A stretch of DNA of 64,000 nt from Aphrocallistes beatrix. Lineage: Eukaryota > Porifera > Hexactinellida > Sceptrulophora > Aphrocallistidae. The translations under genes were made by a program, and so were the position numbers. Positions 9,514 through 62,800 of this stretch are shown here, in pieces. Under the pieces are notes generated by a model, which saw only the letters and a list, made by a program, of their open reading frames with translations, did no database searches and was not told the DNA's origin. The number at the start of each line of letters is the position of its first letter. Positions within the stretch are counted from its first letter, which is position 1. The stretch is taken from NCBI GenBank assembly GCA_963281255.1, contig OY725490.1, positions 3,844,001-3,908,000 of the forward strand, written 5' to 3'.

Positions 9514-10014
9514 TATACAAGTATATACGTATATCTGTAACGAATTGATTGAAGAAACTGCCGGGCGCAGAAAGCTGATTTTTGGCTATGGCTCCACTAA
9601 GTTCTGAGCTCAGAGCAAAATGTCGACTCATCATGGAATTATGACGTCATTGTCACATTTTTAAAAATTAAGCAATAGTTATTCGAGCATAACTCTATTA
9701 TAGGAGATAGAAGGCTGAAATTTTAATAGAATATGCATATTAATATATCTCACATATGATACAACTCTCATCCAAATATGATGACTCATCACTCTGTTAT
9801 CACGTCATCATTACGCATCAAAATTTTAAAAACTGACAAATTTGGTTATTTTCGTGTGATATCGATTATAACAATAGGACAGACGTATTTAGAGATGTTA
9901 TCTCCCTTTTAATAAATCATTGTGACCCCAGGCGCCCGAAGGGCGACTCCGGCGGACACAAAGTGTCCGCCAGCCGCGTAGCGCAAGCAAGCGAAGCGCG
10001 ATTGTATTAATACA
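9514..10014 (+). mobile_element. Non-autonomous Helitron copy H3
   Basis: Family core from TAACGAATTGATTG to the GC-rich 3' tail with the perfect stem GGCGGACAC-AAA-GTGTCCGCC, ending in ATTG in place of the usual CTTG. Its 5' end abuts that of H2. Confidence 0.8.
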
Positions 10015-10070
10015 AAAGAGGTGGGAAATTGTTATAGTTCTCTCTCTTACTACAAAGTAACAAATATAGT

Positions 10071-10251
10071 AGAACTCGCTTAGTACGTACCCCTCCGGGA
10101 AGCGTAAAAAAGTACGTACTATCCGTAAGTACGTACTAACCGAGTTGATTTTACATAGGAATCTATATAATAAATGAATTTTGGTTCAGAGAAATGAGTA
10201 CGTACTAAGCCGAAGTACGTCTTATCCCGAGTACGTACTAACCGAGTTCTG
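10071..10251. mobile_element. MITE with GTACGTACTA subrepeats
   Basis: Inverted ends AGAACTCGCTTAGTACGTAC and GTACGTACTAACCGAGTTCT. The palindromic word GTACGTAC recurs several times inside. Probably pogo- or mariner-related; no clear TSD. Confidence 0.7.
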
Positions 10252-10520
10252 ATGCATACGAATAATCCTTCATATTAATCATGACCCAATCTCCCGTGGT
10301 TATGTTGGATGTTTCTTGCCTTTATCATACTTTTTCTAGCTTCTTTGCCCCCGATTGGGTGCACTCCTGGTTTTCTCGTACAATTTCACTCAATTATTGC
10401 CTCTTCTTTACCGTTATATCGATTGGTGATCTCGGCTGACGGCCAAACCCCAACATGTGCGGAGATAATTTACTCGACGCGTTGTCCAGATTATTGCAGG
10501 AGAAAGTAATCTCTTGAAAC
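10252..10520. other. Unassigned spacer between Helitron copies
   Basis: A short open frame (10309-10509) encodes a hydrophobic peptide, but I see no homology, start context or conservation to support it. Confidence 0.3.
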
Positions 10521-10996
10521 AACAGAAACTGCCAGATACAGAAAGCTGATTTTTGGCATGTGGGAGTCTTTTGGCTATGGCTCCAGTAAGTTCTGAGCTC
10601 AGACGAAAATGTCGACTCATCATGGAATTATGGCGTCATTGTCACCTTTTTTAGAATTAGAAATTTCAGTTTTTCGACCATAACTCAGCCATTTTAAGTG
10701 ATAGAAGGCTGAAATTTTAATAGAATCTGTATATTAATATATCTCACAAATGATGCAATTATAATCAAAAATGATGACTCATCACTCTGCTATGACGTCA
10801 TCATTACGCATCAAATTTTTAAAATTTGACTAATTTGGTAATTTTTCGAGTGATATCGATTTTAACAGTAGGATAGACGGTTTTAGAGATATTATCTACC
10901 TTATAATTAATCAATGTGACCACAGGCGACCGAAGGGAGCCTCTGGCGGACATAGTGTCCGCCAGCCGCGCAGCGCAAGCAAGCGAAGCGCGCTTG
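10521..10996 (+). mobile_element. Non-autonomous Helitron copy H4
   Basis: Begins within the core (GAAACTGCCAGATACAG) and runs to an intact GC-rich 3' tail ending GCGCGCTTG at 10996. The 5' end is missing. The next copy starts at the following base. Confidence 0.85.
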
Positions 10997-11245
10997 TCCT
11001 TACTATTAAAACTCGATTAATGAGTATATATATATACGTATATATATATTTATATATCTTTAACGAATTGATTGAATAAACTGCCAGGCACAGAAAGTTG
11101 ATTTTTGGGATGTAGGAGTCTTTTGGCTATGGCTCCATTAAGTTCTGAGCTCAGACGAAAATGTCGACTCATCACTCTATTATGACGTCATCACACGCAT
11201 CAGAAATTTTGTGATTTTTCATGCGATATCGAATATAACAGTAGG
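10997..11245 (+). mobile_element. Non-autonomous Helitron copy H5 (5' half)
   Basis: Begins TCCTTACTATTAAAACTCG directly after the CTTG end of H4, with no spacer, so H4 and H5 are joined head to tail. The copy stops at about 11245 without the hairpin tail. Confidence 0.85.
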
Positions 11246-11269
11246 TTAAAGGTTAACTAATGATCAATT

Positions 11270-11400
11270 TAACATTTTTCCCTTTCTATTTGATATACTC
11301 TTAACCATAGAAGTTCAATTTTAATTAGCAAACAAACATAATACATTCGAAATAGATTCATAGCACAGTACAGCAAGGCTAACAATTAGACACTAAGTAC
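11270..11400. repeat. Dispersed repeat shared with 60.65-60.86 kb (inverted)
   Basis: Words such as CGAAATAGATTCATAGCAC and the ATTAGACACTAA block occur in reverse complement near 60640-60860. Nature unknown; it may be part of a longer element at 49-60 kb. Confidence 0.55.
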
Positions 11401-11456
11401 GGATAGTCATTATTGAAATCGTGAATTAAATGAGTAATAACTAGTAAACTGAGGGA

Positions 11457-11504
11457 TGTTATGATGTTATGATGTTATGATGTTATGATATTATGATGTT
11501 AAGA
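11457..11504. repeat. 8-bp tandem repeat (GTTATGAT)n
   Basis: About six tandem units of TTATGATG/TTATGATA. Confidence 0.85.
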
Positions 11505-11692
11505 TTAAGGAAGATCAAAACGTAATTATTCCGTTAGACATCACTTCTCTTGCTTCATCATTTATCGGGTCTTGTCACAGCATTCCTAAGAAAAAGAAGA
11601 ATTATTATACTTTTGAAGTTTAGAGTTGTCTGTTTTTGACATTAGAGCAATATTATAATTCTTAATTTTTTTAGCGAGGATACGGTTACACA

Positions 11693-11904
11693 CAGGGTTT
11701 CATCCAGCTTTCCAAGGTCATACGCCTAATTGGACGTCACCATTTTTCTACGCGCCTAGACTCATTTTTATATAGCATTTTTATATATGTTTTATGCCAC
11801 GCGCCTAAGTAGGCGTATGCCGCGCGCCTAGCCCCAAAAAATAATACGCCTAATTATGATCCATGGGATCAAATACGCGCCTCTAGGCGCGCCCAGTACG
11901 CCTG
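11693..11904. mobile_element. hAT MITE, copy 2 (8-bp TSD GTTACACA)
   Basis: Same family as 7671-7894. GTTACACA flanks both sides. The right end is shorter than in copy 1, lacking about 12 bases of the terminal repeat before CCTG. Confidence 0.88.
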
Positions 11905-11912
11905 GTTACACA

Positions 11913-12400
11913 TGGTTATTACAATTTTTATGACTATGTCCTATCGTCATGCATCACAACAACAAAACTCTCTCCACGTATCAATCCATTTGTCTTCAAC
12001 TATGATTAAAATTAATACTAGTAATTTAGTACGAGTTGAACCGAGGTAAAATTGTTTTCGAAGAACTTCAGTTATCAATTTGAATGAAAGTTGTATGGAT
12101 AATAGTAATGTAGTCGCTAACAACAATAGATGGATACACAAGTGAGCCTCTGTCTAATAAATCCACGAGAATCTATTGAGACTCTATACCATTTGATACT
12201 TGCATCGTTTTATCAGTTGCAGTTAAAAATTTGCCACAATCTGGACACAGGTTAGATTTTTTTATACAAGAGAAACTGCATAACCAGTTACGTAATTTAG
12301 GCACTCAATTTGTGAATCATCAAATACAGGTCAGCAATTTATTTTATTTGCAACAACTCCAAATTAAAATATTTTATACGTATATTAAAATGCAATAGTT
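11913..12400. other. AT-rich spacer, nothing recognised
   Basis: No coding or terminal-repeat signal beyond short chance frames. Confidence 0.3.
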
Positions 12401-12404
12401 TTTT

Positions 12405-12545
12405 TGTTTTATTTTGTGCAGAATTGATTGAGGAACTGGGAGGTGGTAGAAAAGTGAAATTCGGCACACAGGTAAATAATAATGAGTCTACGATTAAGTT
12501 CGAAGATATAAGCAAAATCTTCGCCGAGATAGGTGACAATTTGTG
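12405..12545 (+). mobile_element. Second Helitron-like subfamily, fragment 1
   Basis: GAATTGATTGAGGAACTGGG and about 120 further bases match 39520-39660 closely. The lead-in resembles the H-family core but differs, so this is a sister subfamily. A second copy with a 5' end is at 39497. Confidence 0.5.
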
Positions 12546-12809
12546 CCGACCAATGAAATTCGTTTCTTTTATAATGCAAATACATTAGGATCAAACAGTA
12601 GTGACTTATGTATACAATCAAAAGGACTATTTGTGATTGAAATTCATTGGTTCATGTGAGAACCAATCAATCATTAGACTTTTATAATGCGATTCACACG
12701 ATTCTATTTCATATAAATGATTGAATACAGTTATTTTGAGTCTATAATTTGATTGTTAAAAGCATAGCCTACTGTATATAAGGCCTCACAGTAACTTGCG
12801 GACTTGGGA

Positions 12810-12990
12810 CTAGGGATGCGGTAGAAGATGGTTGAACTATTACATGAGCTGCCTTAAATCATTAACAAAGCACAATAGAGCTTAGGAATGTATTACCATC
12901 ATATATAAATATGGTGTCAAAGTACTCATATCCGCTGTTAAAATTTAGATTAGTCACCATATGGTTGCGCGCACTTCTAAGTGTTTTATC
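12810..12990 (+). repeat. Direct repeat partner of 15287-15520
   Basis: From GGGATGCGGTAGAAGATGG through CACTTCTAAGTGTTTT the sequence parallels 15290-15520 in the same orientation at about 75-80% by eye. The two copies lie on either side of Helitron H6. Confidence 0.6.
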
Positions 12991-13430
12991 ACAAGATTTT
13001 TCGCATAGAACTGAGATATGAATGGGTTATAATACGAAAAATTTGGAATTATTTCATTGAATGTTGCTACATTCAGTGTTGCTATAGAAATGTGTTTTGG
13101 TCAATTGGAATCATATCTTGAAAACCGAGATAGCTAGACATTCAAATGTAATTCCATTTGATAGCCAATAGACTATTTCCTATTAAGTGATAATATAATC
13201 TATTTGTCTAAATAATATGATCGCTTAATAGGAATAGTCTATTCGCTATCAAATGGGATTACATTTGAATGTCTAGCTATCATGGTTTTCAAGATATGAT
13301 CCCAACTGATCAAAACACGTTTCCATAGCAGCATTCCATGAAAAGATTCCAAATTCGTATTAAAACCCATTCACATCTCAGTTCTATGTGAAAAATTTTA
13401 TAATAAAAACACTTAGAAATGCCCTTAAAC
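12972..13430. repeat. Palindromic foldback, about 220-bp arms
   Basis: The arm CACTTCTAAGTGTTTTATCA onward (12975-13195) returns inverted at about 13215-13428, with a spacer of roughly 20 bases. No coding sequence. The left part is shared with the direct repeat at 15.3-15.6 kb. Confidence 0.8.
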
Positions 13431-14030
13431 GACCTCTGAAAATCACAAAATTTGTCAATTTTTAAATTTTTTGATGCGTAATGATGACGTCATAACACAG
13501 TGATGAGTCATCATTTTTTATGAGAGCTGTATCATATGTGAGATATATTAATATACACATGCTATTAAAATTTCAGCTCTTTCACCTCACCTAAAATGGC
13601 TGAGTTATAGCCGAAAAACTGAAATTTCTATTCATGAAAAAGGTGACAATGACGTCATAATTCCATAATGAGTCGACATTCTCATCGAGGTCAGGGGCCG
13701 TATTCACTAACATTTTAAGTTCGTACTTAAGTTCGAAGTTAGTACTTAAGTACTGAGTTCGAGCTTAAATGGTATTCACTAAGATCAGTTTAAGTTCGAA
13801 CTTAAGTACGAACTTTAAGGAACCTAGTTAAGCACTAAGTGCGAACTTAACTCGTTTTTGCCGAGATCGGTATTTACTAAGATTTAAATTTGTGCTTAAG
13901 TTTAAACTTAAAAACAACTTTAAGTAACCTCCAGAGGTCGCTTAAATATGTATTCGTTAGCTTCTAAATCGACATATATAGTCTATTTTTCTTTGAAGTA
14001 TCAACACTTATGACATTGTATTACTTGTTA

Positions 14031-14471
14031 GTACTGTTGCGTGATATCTTGAGATCGTAATATTTTGAGATATCGTAGCATTCTGAGATTTTGTTTGGCT
14101 TACTCAAATGGCCTTGTGGTTCAATCGGTTTCATTGTAGCACTAAATTGTGGCACATGACAAAATTTGATGGCACGCGACACAATTTAGTGGCACGAGAC
14201 ACAATTTACTATGTTAAAACCCCATATGGACAATGGATTAATTATATTTTAATAATTTATGGTCCATATGGGGTTCTACCATAGTAAATTGTGTCGCGTG
14301 CCATCAAATTTTGTCATGTACAATTTAGTGCCACAATGAATTCGATTGAACCACAAGGCCATTTGAGTAAGCCAAACAAAATCTCAGAATGCTACGATAT
14401 CTCAAAATATTACAATCTCAAGATATCACGGTACTAAATCATCCATGGTTAAAGATATCACGCAACAGTAC
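14031..14471. mobile_element. Nested palindromic MITE
   Basis: Ends GTACTGTTGCGTGATATC and GATATCACGCAACAGTAC. The arms extend about 200 bases (CTTACTCAAATGGCCTTGTG and its complement), with GTGGCAC... and ACACAATTTA words repeated. The right arm has a short local duplication of AGATATCACG. Confidence 0.8.
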
Positions 14472-14493
14472 TATTTAATCATGTGCTCTAGTA

Positions 14494-14992
14494 CGAGGGG
14501 AGTTCAATGAGTAATTAGCATGAACCTGAACAACTATATTTACGAAACTTTTGTTGTTTATTTTTCAATATAATCGCCTAGAACATCAATGCACTTCTCC
14601 CAACGTTTGATTCAGGTTTCAAATCCACTATGGAAAAAGGTCTTAGGTTGCTTGTCAAAAAACCTAATTACAGCTTCGACCAACTCTTCGTCACTGCCAA
14701 ATTTCCAAATTTTCCAAAAGCTATTGATATAAGAAATTTGGAAATTTGCCAAATTGCATAGGAGCTGAGTCACCGTAAACGTTAACTAGCCTTTGGTGGA
14801 TGTCCATCGGCGCAAAAGAAAAAAAATGAAGAGCTGTATTATAAATTGATAAATTAGAAAGGGAAAATATAGATAAGAATAGGTTGAAGTTGAAAATTAG
14901 TTGTGTACATGTTGACAAACAACTATGCTTAATTTCATTCATCAATAATAAAGAGAAGTCTGGTAGGCTAAGAACTTATTGAACTCCCCTCG
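14494..14992 (-). mobile_element. Internally deleted mariner element (TA TSD)
   Basis: Inverted ends CGAGGGGAGTTCAATGAGT and its complement, flanked by TA on both sides. It keeps a transposase C-terminus at the left end (minus strand). The 499-bp length implies that most of the gene is gone. Confidence 0.88.
14558..14701 (-). pseudogene. Mariner transposase C-terminal remnant
   Basis: Minus-strand translation includes FGSDEELVEAVIRFFDKQ, later KRWEKCIDVLGDYIEK and a stop. This is the typical end of a mariner-clade transposase. One in-frame stop follows HSGFET. The catalytic region is absent, so it is inactive. Confidence 0.85.
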
Positions 14993-15286
14993 TATATTGA
15001 TAATAAAAGTTAGTGCTTAAGTTCGAACTTAAATCTTAGTGAATACGGGTTTTGCTCCGACTTAACTAAGTTTAAACTTAATACTTAAGTTCGAACTTAA
15101 ATCTTAGTGAATACGGGTTTTGCTCCGACTTAACTAAGTTCAAACTTAATACTTAAGTTCGAACTTAGTGCTTAACTTCTTAGTGAATACGGCCCCATAA
15201 CTTAGTGGAGCCATGGCCAAAAGACTCCCACATGCCAAAAATCAGCTTTCTGTGCCTGACTTCTTCAATCAATTCGTTACAGACTG

Positions 15287-15520
15287 GGGATGGGGTAGCA
15301 GATGGTTAACTAATACATTAGGTGCTTTTAAAAATCATTAACCACGCAGAATAGAGATTAAGAATGTATTACCAGAATATATACATATGGTATCAAAGTA
15401 CCTATATCCGTTGCTAAAATCTTGATTAGTCATCATAGGATTGTACAATAGGTTATATTTATGACGAATTTAGTGATTTTCAGATGCAGGACACTTCTAA
15501 GTGTTTTCAATATAAAGTTA
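15287..15520 (+). repeat. Direct repeat partner of 12810-12990
   Basis: Starts GGGATGGGGTAGCAGATGG. The similarity to 12.8-13.1 kb continues weakly to about 15600 (ATTTGGAATTTTTTCATGGA). Confidence 0.6.
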
Positions 15521-15615
15521 CTTGCATCGAAATGGCTGTGAATAGGATGATGTAAACGATTTGGAATTTTTTCATGGAATGCAACGGGTATAGATACTTG
15601 GATACCATATTTATA

Positions 15616-15789
15616 CAGTGAAGATTGGATATAACGACAAATCACAAATAGCGACCATTTTTCCTTGCCCAGAGCGAAATCCTAATCGTATATTGTGTTT
15701 GTGACCCTAAGATCAGATATAGTGACAGATCGCAAATAACGACATTTTTCTCTTGCCCGATCGTACGTCATTATATCCAATCTTCACTG
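15616..15789. mobile_element. Pogo-type MITE (TA TSD)
   Basis: Ends CAGTGAAGATTGGATATAAC and its near-complement, flanked by TA. AACGACA words are internal. No coding. Confidence 0.85.
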
Positions 15790-16327
15790 TATATGCTGGT
15801 AATACATTATTAAGTTCCATTGTTCGAGGTTAATAATTTTAGGCAGCTCATGTATCGGTTCAACCATCCTCATCTGAGTTACTGTTTGGACTTATATGTA
15901 GGGTCATGTGGAAACCAGAATAAAATTTTGCCATGGGGAGCCATTGCTCCCCTTTGCCCCTCCCATAACGACGTCCTGTTCATAAACTGGGGCGTGCCCA
16001 GAGGCGTAGCCAAGGGCCTGCCACGGCCTGCCGGCAGGCCCACACTAAAAGTCCGCAGGCCCACTGCAGGCCCTTCATTAGGTCCATCTGCAGTCCCTAT
16101 TGCTACCCCAGACGAATTTCAGATTTTTTGACATTTACTACTAATTATTTCCATGAACCTACATCATGGAACCCTCCATACAAACTATCTGCTTATACAG
16201 ATATGAATCTCTATTTTGGTTGTTGTCTTTCCCATGTCACTTATTATTGTCCCATTGCTTAATAGTATTTGTGGAAAGTGACATATTGAAGCTTGTGTAT
16301 GCATCTATTCAGATCTTCCTTTGAATA

Positions 16328-19099
16328 ATGGCTTCGAATAATCAGAATGTATTTTGTAATGAATTAATGTTTTCAGTGGATGACAACGACAGCGACAACA
16401 TTGAGGACGACATTGTTCCCACTCCCAGAGCTGGGGTTGGTTAACCGATTTTATGGTTCGGTTATTTTGGTTTCCTCCAGGGCGGTTAACCGGTTAACCG
16501 ATGCTAGTATTAATTGGTTGAAGTATGTATTTTGGACTAAGCTTTAATCTGACATTGAAAAAATTGATAATTTTCAGTGGTTTCGAAATATACTTTGTGG
16601 TTAGAAAATAGGAATTCTATTAAATTAAAAAATTTTTAGAAGTAATATTCTTGAATCTCCTTCGAAAAACAAAGAAATTAGTGTGAATATTTTGAAAATA
16701 AAGCAGATCGGCTAACCGATCTAAGATTTCCTTAACCGTTAACCGAGATTGACGGCGGTTAGCCGGTTAACCGGTTAACCAAATCCAGCCTTGCCACTCC
16801 AAATAAGCAGGGGAGATTTGATGACATTGTTCATCTCATACCTGAAGATATATCACTGGACAAACTACAGACTCCATGTCAACCTGAACCGGCTAAGCAT
16901 TTGCTATTAGCAGATAAGCATGGTAAAACGTTCCAGGTGAAGTGGTACACTGACAGATCCTGGTTGGAGTATTCCATGTCAAAATCTCGAGCTTTCTGCT
17001 TTTGTTGTCGGCATTTTCCCACTCATCGCACCGGCATGTTATGGACGAGAGATGGATTCTGCAGCTGGAATAATGGGAAAAAGGCAATAGCTAAGCATGA
17101 AAAAGGAGACGGACACAAAGATTGTATGGCAGCTTGGACTGCCATGAAGACCGCAAAGCCTGGGATCAAGTCTCTGGTGAACGAATTATATGCAACAGAA
17201 ATCAAACAAAACCGAGAATATCTCGGAGCAGTTATTAATGTTGTTCTTCTGCTCGGGAAACAAGGATTGGCCTTCAGGGGACATCTAGAAGGGCAATCTA
17301 GCAATAATAAAGGCAATTTTCTGGAAGTTTTAGGCCTTTTATCAAAGTATTCAGCAATTGTGGATCAAAAACTAAAGAGAAAAGATGTTAAATACACATC
17401 CCCAGACATCCAAAATGATCTCATTAAGATTATAGCCTCTAGAGTGCGGTGTGAGATCGTGAATGAAGTTCATTCTGCTCGATTCTTCAGCCTACAAGTT
17501 GATGAAACTAAAGATCTTTCCAAAACTGAACAAATTTCAATTTGTTGAGATACATTCTGAATAATGAACCACATGAAGAATTCCTCAATTTCAAACTTGG
17601 TAATGAGCTGAATGCTCAAAGTCTGTTTGATGTCATTTTGGCAACTCTTTCCAAAGAAGGTGTCTATATACAACAGTATGTTTCGCAGTCTTACGACGGA
17701 GCTTCAGTGATGTCAGGGCACTTATCGGGCGTAAGGAGACTTATGACCGATATGGTTCCATGCTGCTTCTACATCCACTGCAATGCACACAAGATGAATC
17801 TTTGCATAGTTGACTGTGTTAAAGGTATTGGTAAGGTTGCTGATCTTTTGGAAGTTCTTCAGAGACTATACATATTCATGAGTGGTTCTGCGGTTCATAA
17901 AGTATTTTCAGAAAAGCTATAGGACGCTAATAAGGACCACAAAGCTGGTGATGAATTCAAACTAACCTTAAAAAGGCATTCTGATACTAGATGGACAAGT
18001 CAGTTTGAGTCATGCAGAGCAGCACGCTCTTCCATGGAATTTATTGTCGAAACCCTTGAGCAGTTCTCCAGTATTGATGAGAGAAACGCTGAAAGAAGAA
18101 ATGTAGCCGACAGACTATTATCAGAGATTACTTCAACATTCATGATACATCTTGTCATGTTTGAAGATATTTTAAGAACCACATCCACTCTTGCAAGGTG
18201 TCTTCGGGGCAAGACATTGGACCTCGCCAGTGCTTTGCATCAAATCGAAAATGTTGAAATACAATTCGCTACCGCTAGGCGTGATGTCGTATCGCCAAAC
18301 AGTCTTTGGCAGACCATTTGGGTAACTGCTCAATCTATCATTAGCAAAATGGAGTTACCAAAACCTGTTCCTCGTTTCTTTCGGAAGACGAGATACCAGA
18401 CTACGGCTGAACATGAAAATCCTAACACAGAGGATGATTATCTTCCCGCTTCACTTCTTTTCTATCCAGTTATAGACCGGATCCTGATTGAATTCAGAAC
18501 TAGATTTTCACACAGAAATATGGATGTCTACAAAGGGCTTCTTGCGCTGAATCCATTGGATCGAACATTTCTCGACTCAGATGCTATTCTTGGTTTGGGA
18601 GCACATTTTGCGGAGCCAACTGGTCCCATTAAAATGCAATATCTCAAAAATGATGTTGCTGCAGTCGGAAGAGTAATTGAAAGCCGCAAGGCTACTGGTC
18701 AATATATTCCCAAGAGCATGGTCGAGATTCTTTTATCTCTTCATTATCTTAAAGAAGCTATCTCAGAATTCTATGTTCTTCTCAGGATAGCGATAACGTT
18801 TCCCATCACTACTGCATCCTGTGAGAGAAGTTTTTCAGTATTGAAAAGGATTAAAAATTGGTTTAAGAACGACTAGTACTGATGATAGGTTAGGAGATTT
18901 GGGTGTTTTAGCTATTTGTTCACAACGCGATGAAGCAATAGCAATAGCTGACATCATCTCTGATTTCAAGGCCCTGTTGCATGAAAAAATGCCCCCACCA
19001 TGGATATTCTTGAGTTTAACACTAAATATTGCTGATACTATTTATATACGATACATTTATGAAAGTCATTGTTATTACTTCACACGACTAGTTTGTTGA
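16328..19099 (+). pseudogene. hAT transposase, ZMYM1-like (TTF zinc finger + DUF4371 + dimerisation)
   Basis: The likely start is the ATG at 16328 (MASNNQNVFCNELMFSVDD...). After a MITE insertion the frame resumes with NKQGRFDDIVHLIPED. Seen in order: a TTF-type zinc-finger region (WYTDRSWLEYS, AFCFCCRHFP, KHEKGDGHKDC); the catalytic hAT core of DUF4371 type (SLQVDETKDLSKTEQ, SYDGASVMSG, HCNAHKMNLC); a long alpha-helical insertion; and the C-terminal hAT dimerisation block (TTASCERSFSVLKRIKNW). Breaks: the MITE in the first exon, a one-base shift near 17545, an in-frame stop near 17920 and a one-base shift near 18866. Otherwise nearly complete and not spliced, so the loss of function looks fairly recent. 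Confidence 0.9.
16427..16793. mobile_element. hAT-type MITE inserted in the transposase first exon
   Basis: Ends near CAGAGCTGGGGTTGGTTAACC (left; its first one or two bases belong to the junction) and GGTTAACCAAATCCAGCCTTG (right) are inverted. The flanks CCACTCCC (16419-16426) and CCACTCCA (16794-16801) form an 8-bp TSD with one mismatch. GGTTAACCGG words recur near both ends. It splits the reading frame between VPTP and NKQGRF. Confidence 0.85.
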
Positions 19100-35321: not shown

Positions 35322-35410
35322 ACACATAGCTCGCTTCGCTTGTTTGCGCTGCCCGGGTGGCAGACACAAAGTGCTGCCAGAGGCGCCCTTTGGTCATATT
35401 GTACCATTAT
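35322..35410 (-). mobile_element. Helitron 3'-tail remnant (H12)
   Basis: Minus-strand GC-rich tail with GCTCGCTTCGCTTG and a stem GGCAG...CTGCC. Here a G-C pair of the family stem is replaced by A-T on both sides. Confidence 0.75.
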
Positions 35411-40881: not shown

Positions 40882-41004
40882 CAAGCGCGCTTCGCTTGCC
40901 TGCGCTGTGTGGCTGGCGGACACTTTGTGGGCGCCTAGGCTCACAATGATTAATTATAAGGTAAGTATACTTCTCTAAATACGTTTGTCTTAACGCATTT
41001 CTAA
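40882..41004 (-). mobile_element. Helitron 3'-tail remnant (H13)
   Basis: Minus-strand CAAGCGCGCTTCGCTTG end with half of the GGCGGACAC stem. It abuts the truncated left side of a hAT gene. Confidence 0.75.
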
Positions 41005-49557: not shown

Positions 49558-50735
49558 GTAACGAATTGATTGAAGAAACTGCCGGGCGCAGAAGGCTGAT
49601 TTTTGGCATGTGGGATTCTTTTGGCTATGGCTCCAGTAAGTTCTGAGTTCAGAGCAAAATGTCGACTCATCATGGAATTATGACGTCATTGTCACATTTT
49701 TAAAAGTTAAGCAACACAGTTATTCGGGCATAACTCAGCCATTATAGGAGATAGAAGGCTGAAATTTTAATAGAATCTGTATACTAACATACCTCACATA
49801 TGATGCGACTTTCAACAAAAAATGATGACTCATCACTTTGTAATGACGTCATCATTACGCATCAAAAATTTTAAAATTGACAAATTTGGTGATTTTTCGA
49901 GTGATATCGATTAGCACAGTAGAACAGACATATTTAGAAATGTTATCTCCCTTATAATTAACCAATGTGACTCCAGGCGACCGAAGGGAGCCTCCGGCGG
50001 ACACGAAGTGTTCGCCAGCCGCGCAGCGCAAGCAAGCGCGAAGCGCGCTTGTTCTATATGAAATCGACAGAAAATTTCAAAATGTTTCTTCAATATCTCA
50101 GAATGGCTTTATAATTTGCATGTGAGTTATATCACAAGGTATAAAAAACTATAATATTAATTATTTATTTACGTCACAGCTCCCCAAAATCATCATAATG
50201 AAAATATTTACTCACCAAGCGTGCCAAACTTCTACACCAGTTTATATACATAACAAGTAATTTTTGATGCAAGTTTTAGACAATATCTCCTACTGTTTCT
50301 TCGAGATGAGGAGCTTAACAGCAGGAATATCTGTATTTTTGCTGATTGATACAATCATGACAAAAACTCGATGTCTCCTTAGGTTGAGAACTAAATCTCT
50401 AATGACATTTTATTGTGTTATATATGTTCCACAATTGTGTTGTTGATTTATAGAATGTAGTTTAAGCTATTTCCAATTTAATCAACGATTATATGTAATT
50501 GTCGGACAGGAGTCCCCTTTTGAAATATTTCTGTGTTTAATAAAATTGATGTATGTACCTAGTCTGTACCTAATACTGGTTGCACCAGGTGATTATTTGC
50601 ACTTTATATTTACCTAACTCAAATATATGAGCTATTATTATCTTGGGTAGTCAGAAGTCTTAGACATTTTTATGTGATGTCATCGGTATTGTGCAAAAAT
50701 TGAATATTGTTCAAAAATTTTTTGGCTTACGTAAG
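49053..50735. repeat. Left arm of a large inverted duplication
   Basis: Matches 58987-60595 in reverse complement at about 90% by eye, from GAACGAGTGTTATCTTA-like sequence to GGCTTACGTA. It carries a Helitron (49487-50051) that the right arm lacks, and lacks the palindrome found in the right arm. Confidence 0.85.
49487..50051 (+). mobile_element. Full-length non-autonomous Helitron (H8), 565 bp
   Basis: The 5' end TCCTTACTATTAAAACTCG is followed by (TA)n, the family core, and the GC-rich hairpin tail ending GCGCGCTTG. The flanks are A and T with no duplication, as expected for Helitron insertion. The right arm of the inverted duplication preserves the empty site. Confidence 0.92.
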
Positions 50736-54104: not shown

Positions 54105-54190
54105 GTAGATTACACCATAGCATTTTATACACTAAGGCAATGGCGCGCTTAACATTTTTGGGACCAGGGATTGGTTAGTTAATTAAGGAA
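54105..54190. repeat. Dispersed repeat, three copies
   Basis: CACTAAGGCAATGGCGCGC and the following block recur inverted at 58030-58112 and, more diverged, at 60880-60960. It may be a terminal or UTR segment of the neighbouring transposase-like element. Confidence 0.6.
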
Positions 54191-55330: not shown

Positions 55331-55390
55331 TGAGTGCAAGATGGATTTGCGGATTGTGTTAGTAAATATTAGGTCAATTGGAATTCTATA

Positions 55391-55412
55391 TCCTTACTAT
55401 TAAAACTCGATT
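55391..55412 (+). mobile_element. Helitron 5'-end scrap (H15)
   Basis: TCCTTACTATTAAAACTCGA and two more bases, cut at once by a GAAANNGAAA foldback. Confidence 0.7.
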
Positions 55413-55526
55413 AAAACCCTAGCACGACTTGGCATATTGAAAGTGAAAATGAAAGTAAACTGAAAGTGAAAATGAAAATGGGGTAATCCCTATTTATACT
55501 TTTGAAGCTAAGTCGTTCCAGGGTTT
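55413..55526. repeat. GAAANNGAAA foldback, copy 3
   Basis: Ends AAAACCCTAGCACGACTTGG and AAGTCGTTCCAGGGTTTAA. The interior has GAAAGTGAAAATGAAAGT-like words and CTATTTATAC. Confidence 0.82.
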
Positions 55527-55566
55527 AATTAATTAATTAATTAATGTGTATATATCACTACTTCTC

Positions 55567-55671
55567 CCAGGAATGTTGAATTGAAAGTGAAAGTTAATTG
55601 AAAGTGAATTGAAATTGAAAATGAAAGTGGGGTTTTTCTATTTATACCTTGGACCCCAAGTAAACGTAGGG
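55567..55671. repeat. GAAANNGAAA foldback, copy 4
   Basis: GAATGTTGAATTGAAAGTGA onward parallels copy 1 closely, ending with CTATTTATACC and a partial right end. It lies 40 bases from copy 3 in the same orientation. Confidence 0.8.
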
Positions 55672-55681
55672 ATATCTATAT

Positions 55682-55714
<33 letters not shown>

Positions 55715-55719
55715 TAATA

Positions 55720-56316
55720 CAGGCGGCCCTCGCCGTTCACGGGTTTGCCATTCGCGGTTTCGACTATTCGAAATTTTTTTGAGTCTTGTTTTGCTATTCG
55801 CGACTCGTTCCCTCGACTATTCGCGGTTTTCGTTGCTCTCTTCAGTAGTTTCATGGGCTACCATAAGTCTATAACCTTATACCTATCTTCATATTATCCT
55901 GGCAATAGCATTTAGTACTGTTTCTATTGTTCCATACTAATACTAGACTCTATTGTTTCTACTTATACTCATAATTTTCTACTTAATAATTACATCATGC
56001 ATAAAAGGAATTTGGTTGGTGATTGAAAGGTTAGACTTTACTATTTAGGTATGGTACTTAGGTTTGCTACTAGGGGATTTATATCTTTCATTTATCACTT
56101 CATTTATTATTACCATTTCACTTGTGCCAGTGTTTGTATAAGTATTACAGCTTAACTATTGACTCAATAATGTATTTAGCAAACTGTATCTAGCGTCGTT
56201 TTTATAATCTAGGAACGTAACCCCACGATTCTCATTGAACTAACGTCTTGCCGTTCGCGATATTGCCATTCGCGGCAATTCTCAGGAACGTAACCCCCGC
56301 GAACGGCGAGGGATAC

Positions 56317-56319
<3 letters not shown>
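55720..56319. mobile_element. Pogo/Tigger-type element, 600 bp (TA TSD)
   Basis: Ends CAGGCGGCCCTCGCCGTTC and GAACGGCGAGGGATACCTG, flanked by TA. ATTCGCGG words are tandem near both ends. No transposase. Confidence 0.88.

Positions 56320-56375
<56 letters not shown>
56320..56375. repeat. (TA)n microsatellite
   Basis: About 28 uninterrupted TA units between two TA-inserting elements. Confidence 0.95.
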
Positions 56376-56378
<3 letters not shown>

Positions 56379-56852
56379 TGCCCGGACAAAAGTATTCGAC
56401 CACCACAGAAACTGCCATACAAATAGTATTAAAGTGGGTGTATTCATAAAGGAATATGTACTCAAACTGTAAGGAATACTCTATTTTTTATTTCAAATTC
56501 GTAAACTACACATTATAATTACTCATAATTGATAGCCTCAGCTTAATTACTAACTCCCAAGTTGAGAAATATCAACATTTGCTACTCGATGCTACTTGTC
56601 CCAAGTCACGGCTATTATATATGGTGGCGTTTAGTGACACAAAGTGGCATAGGTTGATAATTTCTACAGAAGAATAAGTGATTGAGTTGAAACTGTCAAT
56701 TATGAGTAATTAGAATGTGTAGATTACGAATTTGAGCTAAAAAATAGAGTATTTTCTACTGTTTAAGGACATGTTGCTTTTTTAATAGATCTAATTTAAT
56801 ACTATTTGTATGGAAGTTTTCGTGGTGGTCGAATACTTTTGTCCGGGTAGTG
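56376..56852. mobile_element. Tc1-like MITE with long ends (TA TSD)
   Basis: CAGTGCCCGGACAAAAGTAT and its complement begin arms of about 60 bases that include CCATACAAATAGTATTAAA. TA on both sides. Confidence 0.9.
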
Positions 56853-56877
56853 TATATATATATATATATATATATAT

Positions 56878-57355
56878 ATGTAACGAATTGATTGAAGAAA
56901 CTGCCAGGCACAGAAAACTGATTTTTGGCATGTGGGAGTCTTTTGGCTATGGCTCCACTAAGTTCTGACCTCAGACGAAAATGTCGACTCATCATGAAAT
57001 TGTGATGTCATTGTCACCTTTTTTTAAAATTAAAAATTTCAGTTTTTCGACCATAACTCAGCCGTTTTAAGTGATAGAAGGCTGAAATTTAAATAAATTG
57101 TATATATCTCACATATAATACAACTACCATAAAAAAATGATGATTCATCACTCTGTTATGAGGTCATCATTGCACATCAAAAAACTTTTATAATTGACAA
57201 ATTTGGTGATTTTTCGTGCGATATCGATTATAACAGTAGGGCAGACGTATTTAGTGATGTTATCCCCATTATAATTAATCAATGTTACCACAGGCGCCCG
57301 CAGGGCGCCTTCGGCGGACACAGTGTTAGCAGCGCGAGCAAGCGAAGCGCGCTTG
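56878..57355 (+). mobile_element. Non-autonomous Helitron copy H9
   Basis: Family core from TAACGAATTGATTGAAG to a shortened tail ending GCGCGCTTG. The main stem is partly deleted (GGCGGACACAGTGTTAGC). The 5' end is missing. Confidence 0.85.
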
Positions 57356-58128
57356 TACGGTATAAAACTATAAATAAATAATTCCAATTGAATACCTTTA
57401 TATGTTTGTTGTCTTCATAATCCTTCCTTGATCTGGGAATGGCTCTGAACCATTGTTCGCGTAATCACTAATCTTTGGGAAATTAAAAATTGAGGTTGAT
57501 TTATCTTCACCCAAATAGTTAGATCTGCAGCCTGGGACAAGACAGGACATCTGAATAGTCAAAATAAGTTGTAGTTAAAAGTAGTAAGTTGAGGATAAAA
57601 GTGGTAATGAGAATAGAACGTTCTAAGGTATTGGTATAAATTTTGTAAATATACATTATGGGTGGATAAAAAACAAATCGCATTCGAATCTGTACTTGAT
57701 TGTTTTGATGTGGGAAGTGATATCTCGAAGTAAAATCTGCACAAGCCAAATAATGTTTAAAAATAAACATTATTTGGCTTTTGTATCATACTTTAATTAA
57801 ATCATCACTAGACCTAATGATTGATAAACTTCTTTCACAATCATTATGGCGTCAATTTCTTAAATATTAATGGAATATTGGAATTGCAATAAAACGTAAA
57901 AGTGAAATTAAAGTATGGATTCAAAAATATTCTAATATGGTTTATAAGATGTCTAAGGTGTGTAGTTAGTTAATAAATTTAACATCAAATTTCAAATTTC
58001 CCAAGACGATTTAGAAAATATCAACATACAACATCTAATTAACTAACCAATCCCTGGTCCCAAAAATGTTAAGCGCGCCATTGCCTTAGTGTATAGAATG
58101 CTATGATTACACCTTTTATATTCTAGAT
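57356..58128. other. Spacer with a perfect 17-bp hairpin (57743-57780)
   Basis: AAGCCAAATAATGTTTA and its exact complement surround a 4-base loop. The right part (58030-58112) is a copy of the repeat at 54105. No gene. Confidence 0.5.
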
Positions 58129-58293
58129 CAGCGCTGTCCAACAGGCGGCCCGCGGCCTTGCTTTGTGCGACCCACGTTGCGTCCAAAATGCCTCTATCCA
58201 TACCCATCCCGAGTGCACGCCCCTGTATTGCAGCCCGCCACTAAATGGTATGAAGCAGTTGCGGCCCGAAGTAAATATAGTTGAACAGCCCTG
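58129..58293. mobile_element. 165-bp hAT MITE, copy 2 (TSD TTCTAGAT)
   Basis: Same family and length as 21670-21834. TTCTAGAT flanks both sides exactly. Confidence 0.93.
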
Positions 58294-58528
58294 TTCTAGA
58301 TAAAGCTCATTTAGATTGATCAACCATAATCTTTTTTGTTTTGCAAACGTTTGCCATCAACCTTAATAGAGATAAAGTCCTTTTTTCCAGGTAATATACG
58401 AGAGTAATCTTCACTTTCATAAAACTCTCTTACTCTCTCGGTTACATTAACAGGTAGCCTTACAACAACCGCGTTGTGGTTGTTGCTGGGTCCACATAAG
58501 TTAGATAACTATCACTGTGTCTCATAGT

Positions 58529-58980
58529 CAGGGGTGTAGTGTAGGGGGAGCGGGGGGGAGCAGTGCTCCCCCACTACAAATTCAAGGGGGAGCGGTGCTC
58601 CCTCACTACAAATTTGAGGGGGATCGGCGCTCCCTCACTTTAACTTGACGATTGTTATTACCTATAGAATCGTTTGGCAAGAATGGATTGCGGAGTCGAC
58701 TGTTTTATAATGTACTGAAAGCATACATGCCAACCTCTCATGCAAAATAACGGGACATAAGTAGTATCATAATTCTGCCTCGGTGTGTCGAAGTTTGAAA
58801 TATAAAACATCTGCATCGAAGAAGGACAACATTATTTGGAAGTATTTTTAGTTTATGTTACTCGTAATGTGGATTACAACATGTTTCGGTGTTAGAAAAG
58901 TAACTTCGTTTTACCAATTTTTGCTTAATATATTCTTTTATAAGCGCTCCCCCAAAAGAAATTTGAGCACTACACCCCTG
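58529..58980. mobile_element. hAT MITE (TSD CTCATAGT)
   Basis: Ends CAGGGGTGTAGTG and CACTACACCCCTG are exact inverted repeats. CTCATAGT flanks both sides. GGGGGAGCGGTGCTCCC-like words repeat near the left end. Confidence 0.93.
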
Positions 58981-58986
58981 CTCATA

Positions 58987-60595
58987 GTACGTAAGCCAAA
59001 ACATTTTTGAACAATGTTCAATTTTTGCACAACACCAATTACTTCTGACTACCCAGGATAATAATAACTCATATATTTGAGTTAGGTAAATATAAAGTGC
59101 AAATAATCACCTGGTGCAACCAGTATTAGGTACAGACTAGGTACATACATCAATTTTATTAAACACAGAAATATTTCAAAAGGGGCTCCTGTCCGATAAT
59201 CACGTATAATCGTTGATTAAATTGGAAATAGCTTAAACTACATTCTATAAATCAACAACACAATTGTGGAATATATATACCATGATAAAATGTCATTAGA
59301 GATTTAGTTCTCAACCTAAGGAGACATCGAGTTTTGGTCATGATTGTATCAATCAGCAAAAATACAGATATTCCTGCTGTTAAGCTCCTCATCTCGAAGA
59401 AAAAGTAGGAGATATTGTCTAAAACTTACACCAAAAATTACTTGTTATATATGTATATAAACTGGTGTAAAAGTTTGGCACGCTTGGTGAGTAAATATTT
59501 ACATTATGATGATTTGGGGAGCTGTGACGTAAATGTCGAACATAAAAGATAAAAATATTACAAATTTTTCAACAAGCGGTTTTTCAAAAACAACTTAAAA
59601 TAAATAATTAATATTATATAGTTTTGGATATCTTTAGTGATATAACTCACATGCAAATTATAAATTCTGAGATATTGGAGATTTAAGGTTGTTGATTGCA
59701 TTGAATGACCCATATATATTGACCATATTTGGAGAATTTTTTGGTTGTCCGTTCCTAGCAACGGCCAGGAATGTTGAAAAATTCCGATCTCCAAATTTTG
59801 GAGTATCCATACCGAGTGACCCCTTGTTCTTCTCGGCTAGGTTCAGCGAGTACGAATATGTTAATTAGAACATGTAGAATAATGAAGCTTTTGTGGTATG
59901 CCATAGTGGCTGGTATAGTTGAATGTGGTAAACCTTCATCTATTCCACATATTATATTTTGGAGAGTTCTAATTAGCATATTCGTACTCACTGAACCTAG
60001 CCGAGAAGAACAAGGGGTCACTCGGTATGGTTACTCAAAAATTTGGAGATCGGAATTTTTCAACATTCCTGGCCGTCGCTAGGAACGGGTAACCAAATAA
60101 ATTCTCCAAATATGGTCAATATATATATCATATCGCTGGAAATTTAGTGCTGGACGAATTCAACAATAAATATGATCTGGTGTAATTAAAGAAGATATTA
60201 TTGATAGATACAATCCCGGTGATATCACATTATTATAATGTAAAATTCAAATATTAATAATTCGTTCAATAATTAATATTTTAATTTGAAATTTGAAACA
60301 CAAAATACACCAAGGCTGAAATAAACGTAGTTTAAAGGAAAAGTTTGTATCATAAATATTTCATGAGATATTAGCCAAATACTGAGACATAAATTTGATG
60401 TGTCACAGCTAACTCATTTTGTAAAAATTTAAAATTTAACCTTAAAAATGAACTATACCAACTCTCTTCTTTCCACTGGTATAATTATTTTTTGATCTAG
60501 GACGAATACTTTTTTCGAGTGATAAGCGATTAAGTGTGACTCCGAATCCGCCGCTGAATCTGCTGCTAAGATAACACTCGTTCCATTAAAGCTAA
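58987..60595. repeat. Right arm of the large inverted duplication
   Basis: Reverse complement of 49053-50735. It contains the palindrome 59720-60118, absent from the left arm. The inner end is at TACGTAAGCC, where the hAT MITE 58529-58980 also stops. Confidence 0.85.
59720..60118. mobile_element. 399-bp palindromic MITE related to the 0-2 kb foldback
   Basis: Ends TGACCATATTTGGAGAA and TTCTCCAAATATGGTCA. The arms share AGTGACCCCTTGTTCTTCTC with the foldback at 40-2115. The left arm of the duplication shows the uninterrupted site, giving an AT-rich duplication of about 6-8 bases. Confidence 0.88.
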
Positions 60596-60639
60596 ATAAA
60601 ACATCATTTCGGCTTATATTGTCAGATATCTAGTTCAAA

Positions 60640-60960
60640 CTATAGTTTTAGTGTCTAATTGTTAGTCTTGCTGTGATGTGCTATGGATCTATTTCGAATG
60701 TATTATGTTTGTTTGCAATTAAAACAACTTATTATGATTATAAACGCTCATTGATTAAATGCTTACCTTTTGAACCCAGTGATATGAATTTAATAATTGT
60801 GGTATAGAGGAGTACTATATCAAATAGAAAACGAATAAATGTTAAATTGATAATTAGTGAAAAAATCACTTAGCTCGTTTAACCAATCCATGGTCCAGAA
60901 ATTATAGTTGGCGCCATTGCCTTTGTAGTATATTAAAATGCTATGGTTATTCCTTTGAAG
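60640..60960. repeat. Dispersed repeat block
   Basis: 60640-60860 mirrors 11270-11400. 60880-60960 is a diverged copy of 54105-54190. No gene. Confidence 0.55.
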
Positions 60961-61019
60961 TATTAATGACAACGGCAGTCTTTTGTCGTGTCATACGATG
61001 ATTAATATTTTGAGAGTGA

Positions 61020-61394
61020 AGCCATATACATACACTAACCGGACGAAAGTATTTGAACATTTCATTATTTCCTACAAATAGTAGTATATTGGATCTCATG
61101 AAGGGAAATACATTCACACTTTATAAGATACTAGGAGTCTGATTTCATTTTCGAAATCGACACAAGTTCTAACAAACGGCTCGATGACTCGGTGACTCGC
61201 GAGTCATGACTCGATGAATCTGATAAATGACTCGTGAGTCATCGAGTCATATGACTCGTCAAAATTTCTAATGACTCGAGTCATCGAGTCATTTGACTCG
61301 TTGGAAATTTTGATGACTAGTCATCGGGTCTGACTCGATGACTCGTGATGACTCACGAGTCATTGAGTCAATCAAATGACTCGTGAAAAGCCCT
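61020..61394. mobile_element. Tc1-like end plus GACTCG-rich element
   Basis: TACACTAACCGGACGAAAGT (61031) looks like a Tc1 terminus. From about 61185 to 61385 the words GACTCG, GAGTCAT and CGAGTCAT alternate in both orientations, ending near AAAAGCCCTA. This is a MITE-like array; no TSD was identified. Confidence 0.55.
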
Positions 61395-61399
61395 ATTGA

Positions 61400-61575
61400 G
61401 TGTAGGGGGGGAGCGCGCTCCTAATTTTGAGGAGTGCTTGATGTTCTGTTGATAATAAAAATCTTATTTGGCCCGGGCAAAAATGGATATTGGCGGCCCT
61501 AGATTAGGAGCGCTGCTCCGACTTCCGCTTCAGCCTCACTTCTCCAAATAGGAGCGTGCTCCTTTAATAATATTG
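61400..61575. repeat. GGAGCGC/GCGCTCC repeat, partner of 5.33 kb
   Basis: Inverted GGAGCGCGCTCCTAATTTTG and AGGAGCGCTGCTCC blocks. The right part matches 5330-5425 inverted. Confidence 0.5.
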
Positions 61576-62058
61576 CTCTGAATATCAATGGTTATTATAA
61601 GTCTCAAACATGAAAAAAGTAAGTACTTTATTGTTATTCATTGTACATAATATTGTTTACAATTCCCAGTTACAGGGCTTCATATACCCGGGTATCGAAT
61701 AGTAATCGAAATCTTACACCAATGAATTGTCCGGGCCTTTGAGAACCAGATTCCAACCATAGTAATAATTGTACAATGAAAACTTTGAAATCTTTTTGGG
61801 AGGGGGGGGCGACCGCACGTTCGCCCCCCCTGGTCTATTCCATTAATTGCTTGAATTAATACTCACAAAAATGTCACCATATATACTTAATACGTAGAGT
61901 CAATTCTATTTAAAAACACACATACTAGATACATAGATATTTGACATAGTGATAGTGTCAGGAACAGGAAATTTTGGGTCAAATTATCACTTTTTCCAAT
62001 AAAATTAGTATGGAATGTCATCGACTGGGGCAGCTCAAACCCCAATAAATTATCACTA
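61576..62058. other. Spacer with a hAT-like GC patch
   Basis: GGGGGGGGCGACCGCACG near 61803 recalls hAT subterminal sequence. No gene. A short stretch near 61995-62050 resembles the MITE at 40384-40544. Confidence 0.35.
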
Positions 62059-62493
62059 CAACGCTTCGCTTGCTTCCGCTCCGCGGCTGGCGGATACAAA
62101 GTACCCGCCAGAGGCGCCCTGCGGGCGCATAGGCTCACAATGATTAATTATAAGTTAGATAACATCTCTAATTACGTCTGTCTTACTGTCACAATCGATA
62201 TCACTCGAAAAGTCACAAAATTTGTCAATTTTTTATTTTTGATGAGTAATGATGACGTCATAACAGAGTGATGAGTCATCATTTTTTGATGATAGTAGTA
62301 ACATATGTGAGATATATTAATATACACATTATATTAAAAATTTAGCCTTCTATCACTTTAAATGACTGAGTTATGTTCGAAAAACAAATTTCTAATTATA
62401 AAAAAGGTGATAGTGGCATAATTCCATGATGAGTCGACATTTTCGTCTGAGGTCAGAACTTAGTAGAGCCATAGCCAAAAGACTCCCACATGC
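62059..62493 (-). mobile_element. Non-autonomous Helitron copy H10
   Basis: Inverted copy with hairpin tail GGCGGATAC-AAA-GTACCCGCC. In this stem one C-G pair is replaced by T-A on both sides. The core runs to about 62493 (CCAAAAGACTCCCACATGC), where the 5' end is lost. Confidence 0.85.
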
Positions 62494-62699
62494 TTTCTAT
62501 AGATTAATCCTTTCCAAAGCGTGACTACTAGCATATGTGTCTACTTGTGCAGTTTGCCACTTGTTATTACCAGTATATATTTTTGGAAGAAGTGGATCAA
62601 GGTGGCACAAGCGATATTAATTACCTTTTAAACATAATTGATATATAGAAAACTTCTAAACTGAGTAATTCGAGCGTGTATTTTTCGAACTTAATGTCA

Positions 62700-62800
62700 G
62701 ATTTTTAATTAATCAATGTGATCCCATGCACCCACAGGGCGCCTCCAGCGGACATAAAGTGTCCGCCAGCCGCGCAGCGCAAGTAAGCGAAGCGCGCTTG
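62700..62800 (+). mobile_element. Helitron 3'-tail remnant (H11)
   Basis: TAATTAATCAATGTGATCCC through the stem (CAGCGGACA...TGTCCGCCAG) to GCGCGCTTG at 62800. The Tigger element follows after TATA. Confidence 0.8.

What the first reader, a model, noticed from the sequence alone, without database searches (positions are those of the whole stretch)
9930..62800. Helitron 3' tail is a cassette of GC-rich hairpins with compensatory changes
Copies ending at 10014, 10996, 50051 and 62800, and the inverted ones at 35322, 40882 and 62059, share a roughly 70-base GC-rich tail in an AT-rich genome. It holds a hairpin GGCGGACAC-loop-GTGTCCGCC between two smaller ones. Stem bases co-vary: at 62059 a C-G pair became T-A, and at 35322 a G-C became A-T with a bulge. 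The loop reads AAA in some copies and its complement in others. Helitrons usually show a single short 3' hairpin, so a conserved multi-hairpin end with covariation suggests selection on structure.
Basis: partly seen in the sequence, partly recalled or inferred. Interest (0 to 1): 0.72.

Follow-up and report, generated by a model that had tools for sequence, protein, structure and literature searches.

The report
Helitron tail hairpins whose loops flip
The tail of this very abundant jumping gene can fold into DNA hairpins; in the sampled copies the stem letters hardly co-vary, but in several of every hundred copies the tip of the main hairpin has been flipped in one step, a likely trace of copying across a folded DNA strand.

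Summary
The tail is real and is the 3' end of a Helitron. The genome (100.5 Mb, unnamed) has 7664 matches to its core. Two elements with long Helitron_like_N frames end in it; insertions lie between A and T.

The claimed covariation is largely unsupported. In 98 distinct copies not chosen on hairpin H2, no stem pair is significant against a tree-based null. The clear compensated change, G-C to T-A at the base of H2, is one family difference; a small pooled excess remains.

The loop remark is the real find. AAA to TTT is an inversion: TTT outnumbers one-step intermediates, GAA becomes TTC, H1 also flips. TTT is 6 of 101 copies not chosen on H2 and 64 of 633 exact 51-base tails. TTT copies scatter over trees as shuffled labels do. 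No flip was found over the doubly mismatched H1 form.

Best reading: recurrent spacer inversion by template switching across a formed hairpin, perhaps during transposition. The process is known; I found no paper reporting it in a Helitron end.

The parts
9534..10004 (+). Non-autonomous Helitron copy from TCTGTAACGAATTG to ...ATTG (its true 5' TC may lie further upstream); H1 9931-9947, H2 9951-9971 (loop AAA 9960-9962), terminal hairpin H3 about 9975-10000
10916..10996 (+). Tail of a second copy (5' start not found by the search); H2 10945-10963 with shortened loop; followed directly by TCCTTACTATTAAAACTC, the 5' end of another Helitron (head-to-tail junction)
49965..50051 (+). Tail of a copy with loop GAA and a G.T pair in H2 (start approximate)
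56877..57355 (+).
62714..62800 (+). Tail of a copy whose 5' start was not found; H2 loop AAA beside a C to T change (CATAAAGTG)
62059..62142 (-).
40882..40955 (-). Tail of an inverted copy that lacks part of H1 and the outer left arm of H2 (GGCGCCCACAAAGTG); start approximate
35325..35400 (-). Tail of an inverted copy with flipped loop TTT, an A-T pair and a missing base in H2; start approximate

Best explanation
The tail is the right end of a Helitron family. Two elements with long open frames (1947 and 1970 aa, Helitron_like_N) end in it, so they are probably the autonomous partners. The tail carries three hairpins: H1 (7 bp), H2 (9 bp, 3-base loop) and a terminal one next to the 3' tetranucleotide, which is usually CTTG. 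In several of every hundred copies, about one in ten of the well-kept tails, the 3-base loop of H2 has been replaced by its reverse complement, apparently in one event and again and again in different copies. The likely cause is DNA-polymerase template switching across the hairpin arms (inverted-repeat spacer inversion): a nascent strand that has copied one arm pairs with the equivalent arm on the other strand, copies the loop backwards and returns. That needs good stems, which fits frequent flips in H2, fewer in H1, and none found over the doubly mismatched H1 form. Shown: the inversion, its presence in several subfamilies, scatter over trees like shuffled labels, and no age difference in matched sets. 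Inferred: template switching, and that it happens at or near transposition, when the element passes through single-stranded DNA. Stem substitutions are mostly independent decay; conservation of H2 at the sources, more than covariation, is the sign that the hairpin matters.
For: Loops: of the first 100 listed of 782 exact matches with a non-A first loop base, GAA 70, TTT 17, TTC 4, TAA 3, GCA 2, and TAT, TTA, CAA, GTT 1 each: the triple change exceeds its single-step intermediates and TTC is the reverse complement of GAA. Copies not chosen on H2: TTT 6 of 101, AAA 62, GAA 19, TAA 1, ATA 1, TTA 1. H2 TTT against AAA: 392 against 3821 at <=1 mismatch (both include one-step loop variants); exact 51-mers 64 listed against 569. 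H1: 58 matches to the flipped pattern at <=2 mismatches, by my count 27 TTT, 5 TGC (reverse complement of GCA), 2 TGT (of ACA), the other 24 not inversions, against 3133 for the unflipped pattern, which at 2 mismatches also admits the mismatched form. The exact doubly mismatched arms GGCGACC/GGGAGCC are in 31 of 101 copies, the perfect arms in 8 of 101, yet none of 19 matches of a pattern open to both has the doubly mismatched arms. Recurrence: 22 TTT copies need 21 steps on a tree of 129 copies without H2, 20.6-20.7 if shuffled; 35 ordinary columns of like frequency have a median of 0.67 steps per copy; 15 exact-51 TTT copies need 12 steps, 12.8 shuffled. Age: 29 of 100 listed exact-22 TTT copies are also exact-51, against 569 of 1700 for AAA (Fisher p 0.38); terminal branches 0.062 (13) against 0.065 (15) and 0.070 (25). 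Helitron identity. Known process: passages of PMC8604942 and PMC8794818.
Against: No intermediate of the switch is seen, and with perfect arms its breakpoints are invisible. [quoted passage not shown] here the stems are 9 and 7 bp, somewhat longer when flanking bases pair. Homogenisation of arms, the usual partner of spacer inversion, is weak here. Three of the 19 matches pair a flipped loop with a single arm change, so a perfect stem may not be strictly needed (or the change came later). GAA copies, which I take for a subfamily form that decays to AAA at a CpG, also scatter (17 copies, 15 steps, 16.2 shuffled), and a few ordinary columns approach one step per copy, so the tree is an imperfect witness. 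One age comparison gave TTT copies longer branches (0.061 against 0.039, p 0.008); it vanished when both sets had to match in H3 (7 against 23, p 0.56). Exact-51 tails are not all young (nearest-neighbour body distance about 0.07). The count of 64 comes from a capped list and may be a lower bound. No non-Helitron hairpin of equal stem was used as control, so a link to transposition is not shown. The two elements with long frames have a C.T mismatch inside H2.
Confidence: 0.7

Rival explanations
1. Selection on structure: compensatory substitutions keep the stems paired while their sequence drifts.
For: One compensated family-level change at the outer H2 pair (11 rows); low H2 stem change rate; H1 has 13 Watson-Crick doubles against 4.5 shuffled (0 of 1000), 2-8 when slid; H2 has 7 same-branch co-changes against 3.6 (75 of 2000).
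Against: No stem pair is significant against a tree-based null; one-sided changes dominate (43 + 50 against 5 in the inner 8 H2 pairs); a common H1 form has two internal mismatches (31 of 101 with exactly those arms); two elements with long frames carry a C.T mismatch in H2. It does not explain loop inversion.
Confidence: 0.15
2. The inversions arise after insertion, slowly, by template switching in ordinary host replication; Helitron transposition has nothing to do with them. (A variant of the best explanation, not exclusive of its first half.)
For: Spacer inversion by template switching is documented in ordinary yeast genes (PMC8604942, passages); the flips look mostly private; one unmatched comparison had TTT copies older.
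Against: A steady build-up would put about 11-16 of 100 exact-22 TTT copies in the exact-51 class; 29 of 100 were seen (P 1e-6 to 6e-4 under that simple model); in matched sets TTT copies are no older than AAA copies. The model rests on assumed age distributions of mine, so this is a leaning, not a proof.
Confidence: 0.3
3. TTT marks one or a few old subfamilies amplified from flipped source elements.
For: 392 matches at <=1 mismatch is a large number.
Against: TTT occurs beside different subfamily markers of H1 and the upstream stretch; 21 steps for 22 copies and 12 for 15, as in shuffled labels; GAA has its own TTC form.
Confidence: 0.05

Closest known systems
Canonical Helitron (Helitron1), for example Helraiser/Helibat1 (PMC4778049, passages read)
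   Same: 5' TC, insertion between A and T, 3' hairpin, Rep/helicase protein family, head-to-tail 3'/5' junctions
   Different: 3' tetranucleotide is CTTG in 105 of 114 scored ends, not CTRR; three hairpins, the last next to the end, instead of one about 11 nt upstream; in Helraiser a changed loop (with one neighbouring base pair) dropped activity to the level without hairpin, while here flipped loops occur in 6 of 101 to 64 of 633 copies
Helitron2/Helentron group (PMC5148889, passages read)
   Same: Rep and helicase domains; more than one terminal hairpin is known there, one at each end
   Different: asymmetric terminal inverted repeats and an endonuclease domain were not tested here; insertion here is between A and T; an OTU-like domain was found in one element
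Inverted-repeat spacer inversion by template switching (PMC8604942 and PMC8794818, passages read)
   Same: loop replaced by its reverse complement between paired arms, recurrent; in yeast long arms were preferred
   Different: reported there as 10 events in yeast coding sequence (arms over 9 bp) and 69 in rRNA histories; here a few hundred pattern matches in copies of one transposon end, with 9- and 7-bp stems

Membership tests
Helitron (Helitron1 type) | Rep/helicase protein: Helitron_like_N plus PIF1 helicase | tested here: met
   PF14214: 106 matches in the genome, best E 5e-61, open frames of 1947, 1959 and 1970 aa, none in 14 control genomes. PIF1 (E 4.6e-75) and OTU (E 5.3e-5) were tested only in the 1959-aa element (L125), whose own 3' end I did not find; the two elements shown to end in this tail were tested for Helitron_like_N only. 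The HUH residues were not checked.
Helitron (Helitron1 type) | Insertion between A and T with 5' TC | tested here: met
   T follows the 3' end in 114 of 114 scored; A precedes 5' TC in 61 of 64 (family-1 type) and 7 of 8 (family-2 type), the rest G; 33 of the 64 are 5' ends without the known body behind them; head-to-tail junctions put G there at least twice
Helitron (Helitron1 type) | 3' end CTRR | tested here: not met
   CTTG in 105 of 114, GTTG 4, TTTG 3, ATTG 2 (the search pattern itself required TTG)
Helitron (Helitron1 type) | A short hairpin 10-12 nt before the 3' end | tested here: inconclusive
   Hairpins are present, but the terminal one lies within about five bases of the end and H2 ends about 33 nt upstream
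Helitron (Helitron1 type) | The tail belongs to an element with the protein | tested here: met
   Two elements with long frames (C2, C7) stay about 98% alike up to the tail ending CACTTG and within about 10 bases beyond it lose similarity; their 5' similarity begins within 4 bases of A|TCTTATATATTAAAAC. Activity is not shown.
Helitron2/Helentron | Asymmetric terminal inverted repeat, endonuclease domain | not tested
   No protein phylogeny was made and the full protein was not examined
Template-switch spacer inversion | Spacer replaced by its exact reverse complement between paired arms | tested here: met
   AAA/TTT, GAA/TTC, GCA/TGC, ACA/TGT; none with the doubly mismatched H1 arms among 19 matches, three with one arm change
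Template-switch spacer inversion | Homogenisation of imperfect arms | tested here: inconclusive
   5 Watson-Crick doubles against 2.0 shuffled in the inner 8 H2 pairs, 49 of 1000 shuffles reach it; 13 against 4.5 in H1
Structure under selection with covariation | Pairs that covary beyond phylogeny | tested here: not met
   No pair of H1 or H2 is significant; H3 was tested only, on rows mostly picked by an exact H3 pattern, and in one of two possible folds, so it says little there

The most novel reading that the evidence does not exclude
Helitron transposition itself flips the hairpin: up to one new copy in ten leaves the single-stranded or rolling-circle stage with the H2 loop inverted, because the hairpin is folded then and is copied by switching between arms. 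Thousands of copies would then be a fossil record showing that the 3' hairpin physically forms as DNA during transposition, and the share of flipped loops would measure how often.
Probability: 0.35. Interest if true: 0.75.

Novelty: new variant of a known kind. Interest (0 to 1): 0.5.

Why it matters
Compensatory change is often read as proof of a selected fold. Here a hairpin with thousands of copies shows mostly independent stem decay together with recurrent one-step loop inversion, so mutation by template switching can be studied apart from selection. If the flips are tied to transposition they would be sequence evidence that the Helitron 3' hairpin folds as DNA, which the terminator model assumes. 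My searches (lists seen, four papers read in passages) found loop inversion in yeast genes and rRNA and the hairpin in Helraiser, but no listed paper that joins the two; most subscription journals and preprints are not held.

Tried and rejected
Rfam: no family in the window at gathering scores. tRNA/SINE origin: ARAGORN with the bacterial setting found no tRNA gene. The first alignment mixed orientations and was dropped. An idea that C5 lacks copies because it is foreign was dropped: C5 has only 33,681 bases. An idea that TCCTTACTATTAAAACTC is a separate palindromic MITE split by Helitrons was tested (no uninterrupted palindrome in the held loci; 16 of 40 copies have it upstream in direct orientation, 2 of 40 have both arms) and dropped in favour of a Helitron 5' end (A before it in 61 of 64). 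Lists of searches with many matches are incomplete (differ), so I used only the 100 rows for the exact-22 TTT class. The covariation test is my own R-scape-like script (FastTree, parsimony, 30 and 100 simulations), not R-scape. Rows dropped there: of 162 aligned tails, those chosen by similarity or by the TTT pattern and those with more than one gap in H2, leaving 101, 98 distinct; 11 family-2 rows were shifted by one column. CpG hypermutation was considered for the A-T pair at the CpG sites; window CpG o/e is 0.85, only mild depletion. The organism was not identified.
Full report
OBSERVATION. The core of the terminal hairpin occurs 7664 times at up to one mismatch, against 2 for the reversed control.

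WHAT IT IS. PF14214 (Helitron_like_N) has 106 matches in the genome, with open frames of 1947, 1959 and 1970 aa. Stretches behind two of these elements (C2, 1970 aa; C7, 1947 aa) are about 98% alike until the tail ...CACTTG and lose similarity within about 10 bases beyond it; their 5' similarity begins within 4 bases of A|TCTTATATATTAAAAC. The 1959-aa element carries PIF1 and an OTU-like domain; its own 3' end was not found. Over held copies the base after the 3' TTG is T in 114 of 114 scored, and the base before the 5' TC is A in 68 of 72, the rest G. Head-to-tail junctions, where another 5' end follows the CTTG directly, account for some of those G. So this is a Helitron family inserting between A and T, with CTTG instead of CTRR at 105 of 114 scored ends.

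ANATOMY. H1 is GGCGCCC-RAA-GGGCGCC, with exactly these perfect arms in 8 of 101 copies not chosen on H2; a commoner form has GGCGACC/GGGAGCC with two internal mismatches (31 of 101 with exactly those arms, 47 of 101 with both marker bases). H2 is GGCGGACAC-AAA-GTGTCCGCC. H3 is an interrupted stem next to the 3' tetranucleotide in some of the folds made. The two elements with long frames have a C.T mismatch in H2.

COVARIATION. From 162 aligned tails, 101 not chosen by similarity or by loop and with at most one gap in H2 gave 98 distinct rows. Against a tree-based null no pair of H1 or H2 is significant; the top-ranked pair is an unpaired subfamily marker in H1. After shifting 11 family-2 rows, the outer H2 pair (G-C to T-A) reaches rank 5 of 3570 with E 22, reflecting one family-level difference. 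Over all 9 H2 pairs there are 16 Watson-Crick doubles against 3.8 shuffled; without that outer pair 43 left-only, 50 right-only, 5 Watson-Crick double and 5 other double changes, against 2.0 shuffled (49 of 1000 reach 5) and 0-4 in slid pairings. H1 has 13 Watson-Crick doubles against 4.5 shuffled (0 of 1000) and 2-8 slid. Co-changes on the same branch are 7 against 3.6 in H2 (75 of 2000) and 29 against 26.7 in H1 (642 of 2000). H2 stem sites change less than the other sites compared (0.084 against 0.184), which suggests constraint at the source.

LOOP INVERSION. Of the first 100 listed of 782 exact H2 matches with a first loop base other than A: GAA 70, TTT 17, TTC 4, TAA 3, GCA 2 and four singletons. 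TTT is thus commoner than the steps that would lead to it, and TTC is GAA inverted. In the 101 copies not chosen on H2 the loops are AAA 62, GAA 19, GCA 6, TTT 6, ACA 2 and six singletons. At up to one mismatch the TTT and AAA patterns give 392 and 3821 matches, each count including one-step loop variants. In H1 the flipped pattern has 58 matches at up to two mismatches: by my count 27 TTT, 5 TGC, 2 TGT and 24 others that are not inversions of the known loops, against 3133 for the unflipped pattern. A pattern that also admits the mismatched arms finds 19 matches, none with the GGCGACC/GGGAGCC pair and three with a single arm change.

ONE EVENT OR MANY. On a tree of 129 copies with H2 masked, 22 TTT copies take 21 steps (20.6-20.7 when shuffled); 35 ordinary columns of like frequency take a median of 0.67 steps per copy and the two H1 markers 28 and 29 against 55 and 52 shuffled, so the tree does resolve inheritance in part. 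GAA copies also scatter (17 copies, 15 steps, 16.2 shuffled), which I ascribe to CpG decay of GAA to AAA, untested. Fifteen TTT copies with an exact 51-base tail take 12 steps (12.8 shuffled), and their nearest neighbours are TTT no more often than by chance (5 against 4.9; two of the 15 have unalignable bodies). Most flips therefore look independent.

WHEN. Among exact 51-base tails TTT is 64 listed against 569, or 10.1%. Of 100 listed exact 22-base TTT copies 29 are also exact over 51 bases, against 569 of 1700 for AAA (Fisher p 0.38); a steady build-up with age would predict about 11 to 16 under simple age models of mine. Terminal branches are 0.062 for 13 TTT and 0.065 or 0.070 for 15 or 25 AAA copies. 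One comparison with unequal selection had TTT older (0.061 against 0.039, p 0.008); with matched H3 it was 0.043 against 0.039 (7 against 23, p 0.56). The share is not higher in the less well kept sample (6 of 101). This leans towards flipping near the birth of a copy but does not prove it, because exact tails are not all young and no hairpin outside Helitrons served as control.

MECHANISM AND LITERATURE. Passages of PMC8604942 describe homogenisation of inverted-repeat arms and spacer inversion by intermolecular template switching, with 10 inversions in yeast genes, arms above 9 bp, spacers of 2-5 bp, and reversals. Passages of PMC8794818 list 69 loop inversions in rRNA histories. Passages of PMC4778049 report that the Helraiser 3' hairpin acts as terminator, that deleting it cut corrected transposition to 8.8%, that swapping the stem kept about 90% activity and that a loop change made together with one neighbouring pair behaved like the deletion. 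In that light flipped copies here may be poor sources, which would fit their scatter; this is inference. Passages of PMC5148889 give the Helitron1 and Helitron2 end rules. The other papers were seen only in search listings.

VERDICT. Ordinary: a Helitron end with hairpins. Largely unsupported: general covariation. New in scale and setting, as far as my searches go: recurrent one-step loop inversion in many copies of one transposon end.

Noticed in passing
window 10996-10997; L139 (C7) and L060: Head-to-tail Helitron junctions: 3' CTTG joined directly to another 5' TC, as expected of circles or tandem products.
   Followed up: partly
L133 2-700 with L161 (C2, 1959-aa element): The Rep/helicase frame of this Helitron ends in an OTU-like cysteine protease domain (E 5e-5).
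   Followed up: partly
L134 and L135, read on the - strand, about 1150-1650 and 1100-1480 of the reverse complement: A minisatellite of units like ATGCAGATACACCACGAGACGAATGT lies between the long frame and the 3' tail, apparently with different copy numbers in the two elements.
   Followed up: no
40882-40955 (-), L036, L012, L053, L079, L101: Recurrent deletions that remove H1, or H1 together with part of H2, with ends near the repeated GGCGCC or CCC of the hairpins.
   Followed up: no
G000 C2:1690896 and C16:1298769: Two flipped-H1 copies carry a perfect compensated pair (GGCGTCC/GGACGCC and GGCACCC/GGGTGCC), as a template switch that copies one arm from the other could leave.
   Followed up: no
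flanks listed; for example L001, L010, L032: Many copies sit in TA repeats, some beside what look like ends of other DNA transposons (CAGTCGA-type, recalled), so Helitrons here seem to land in TA-rich sites.
   Followed up: no
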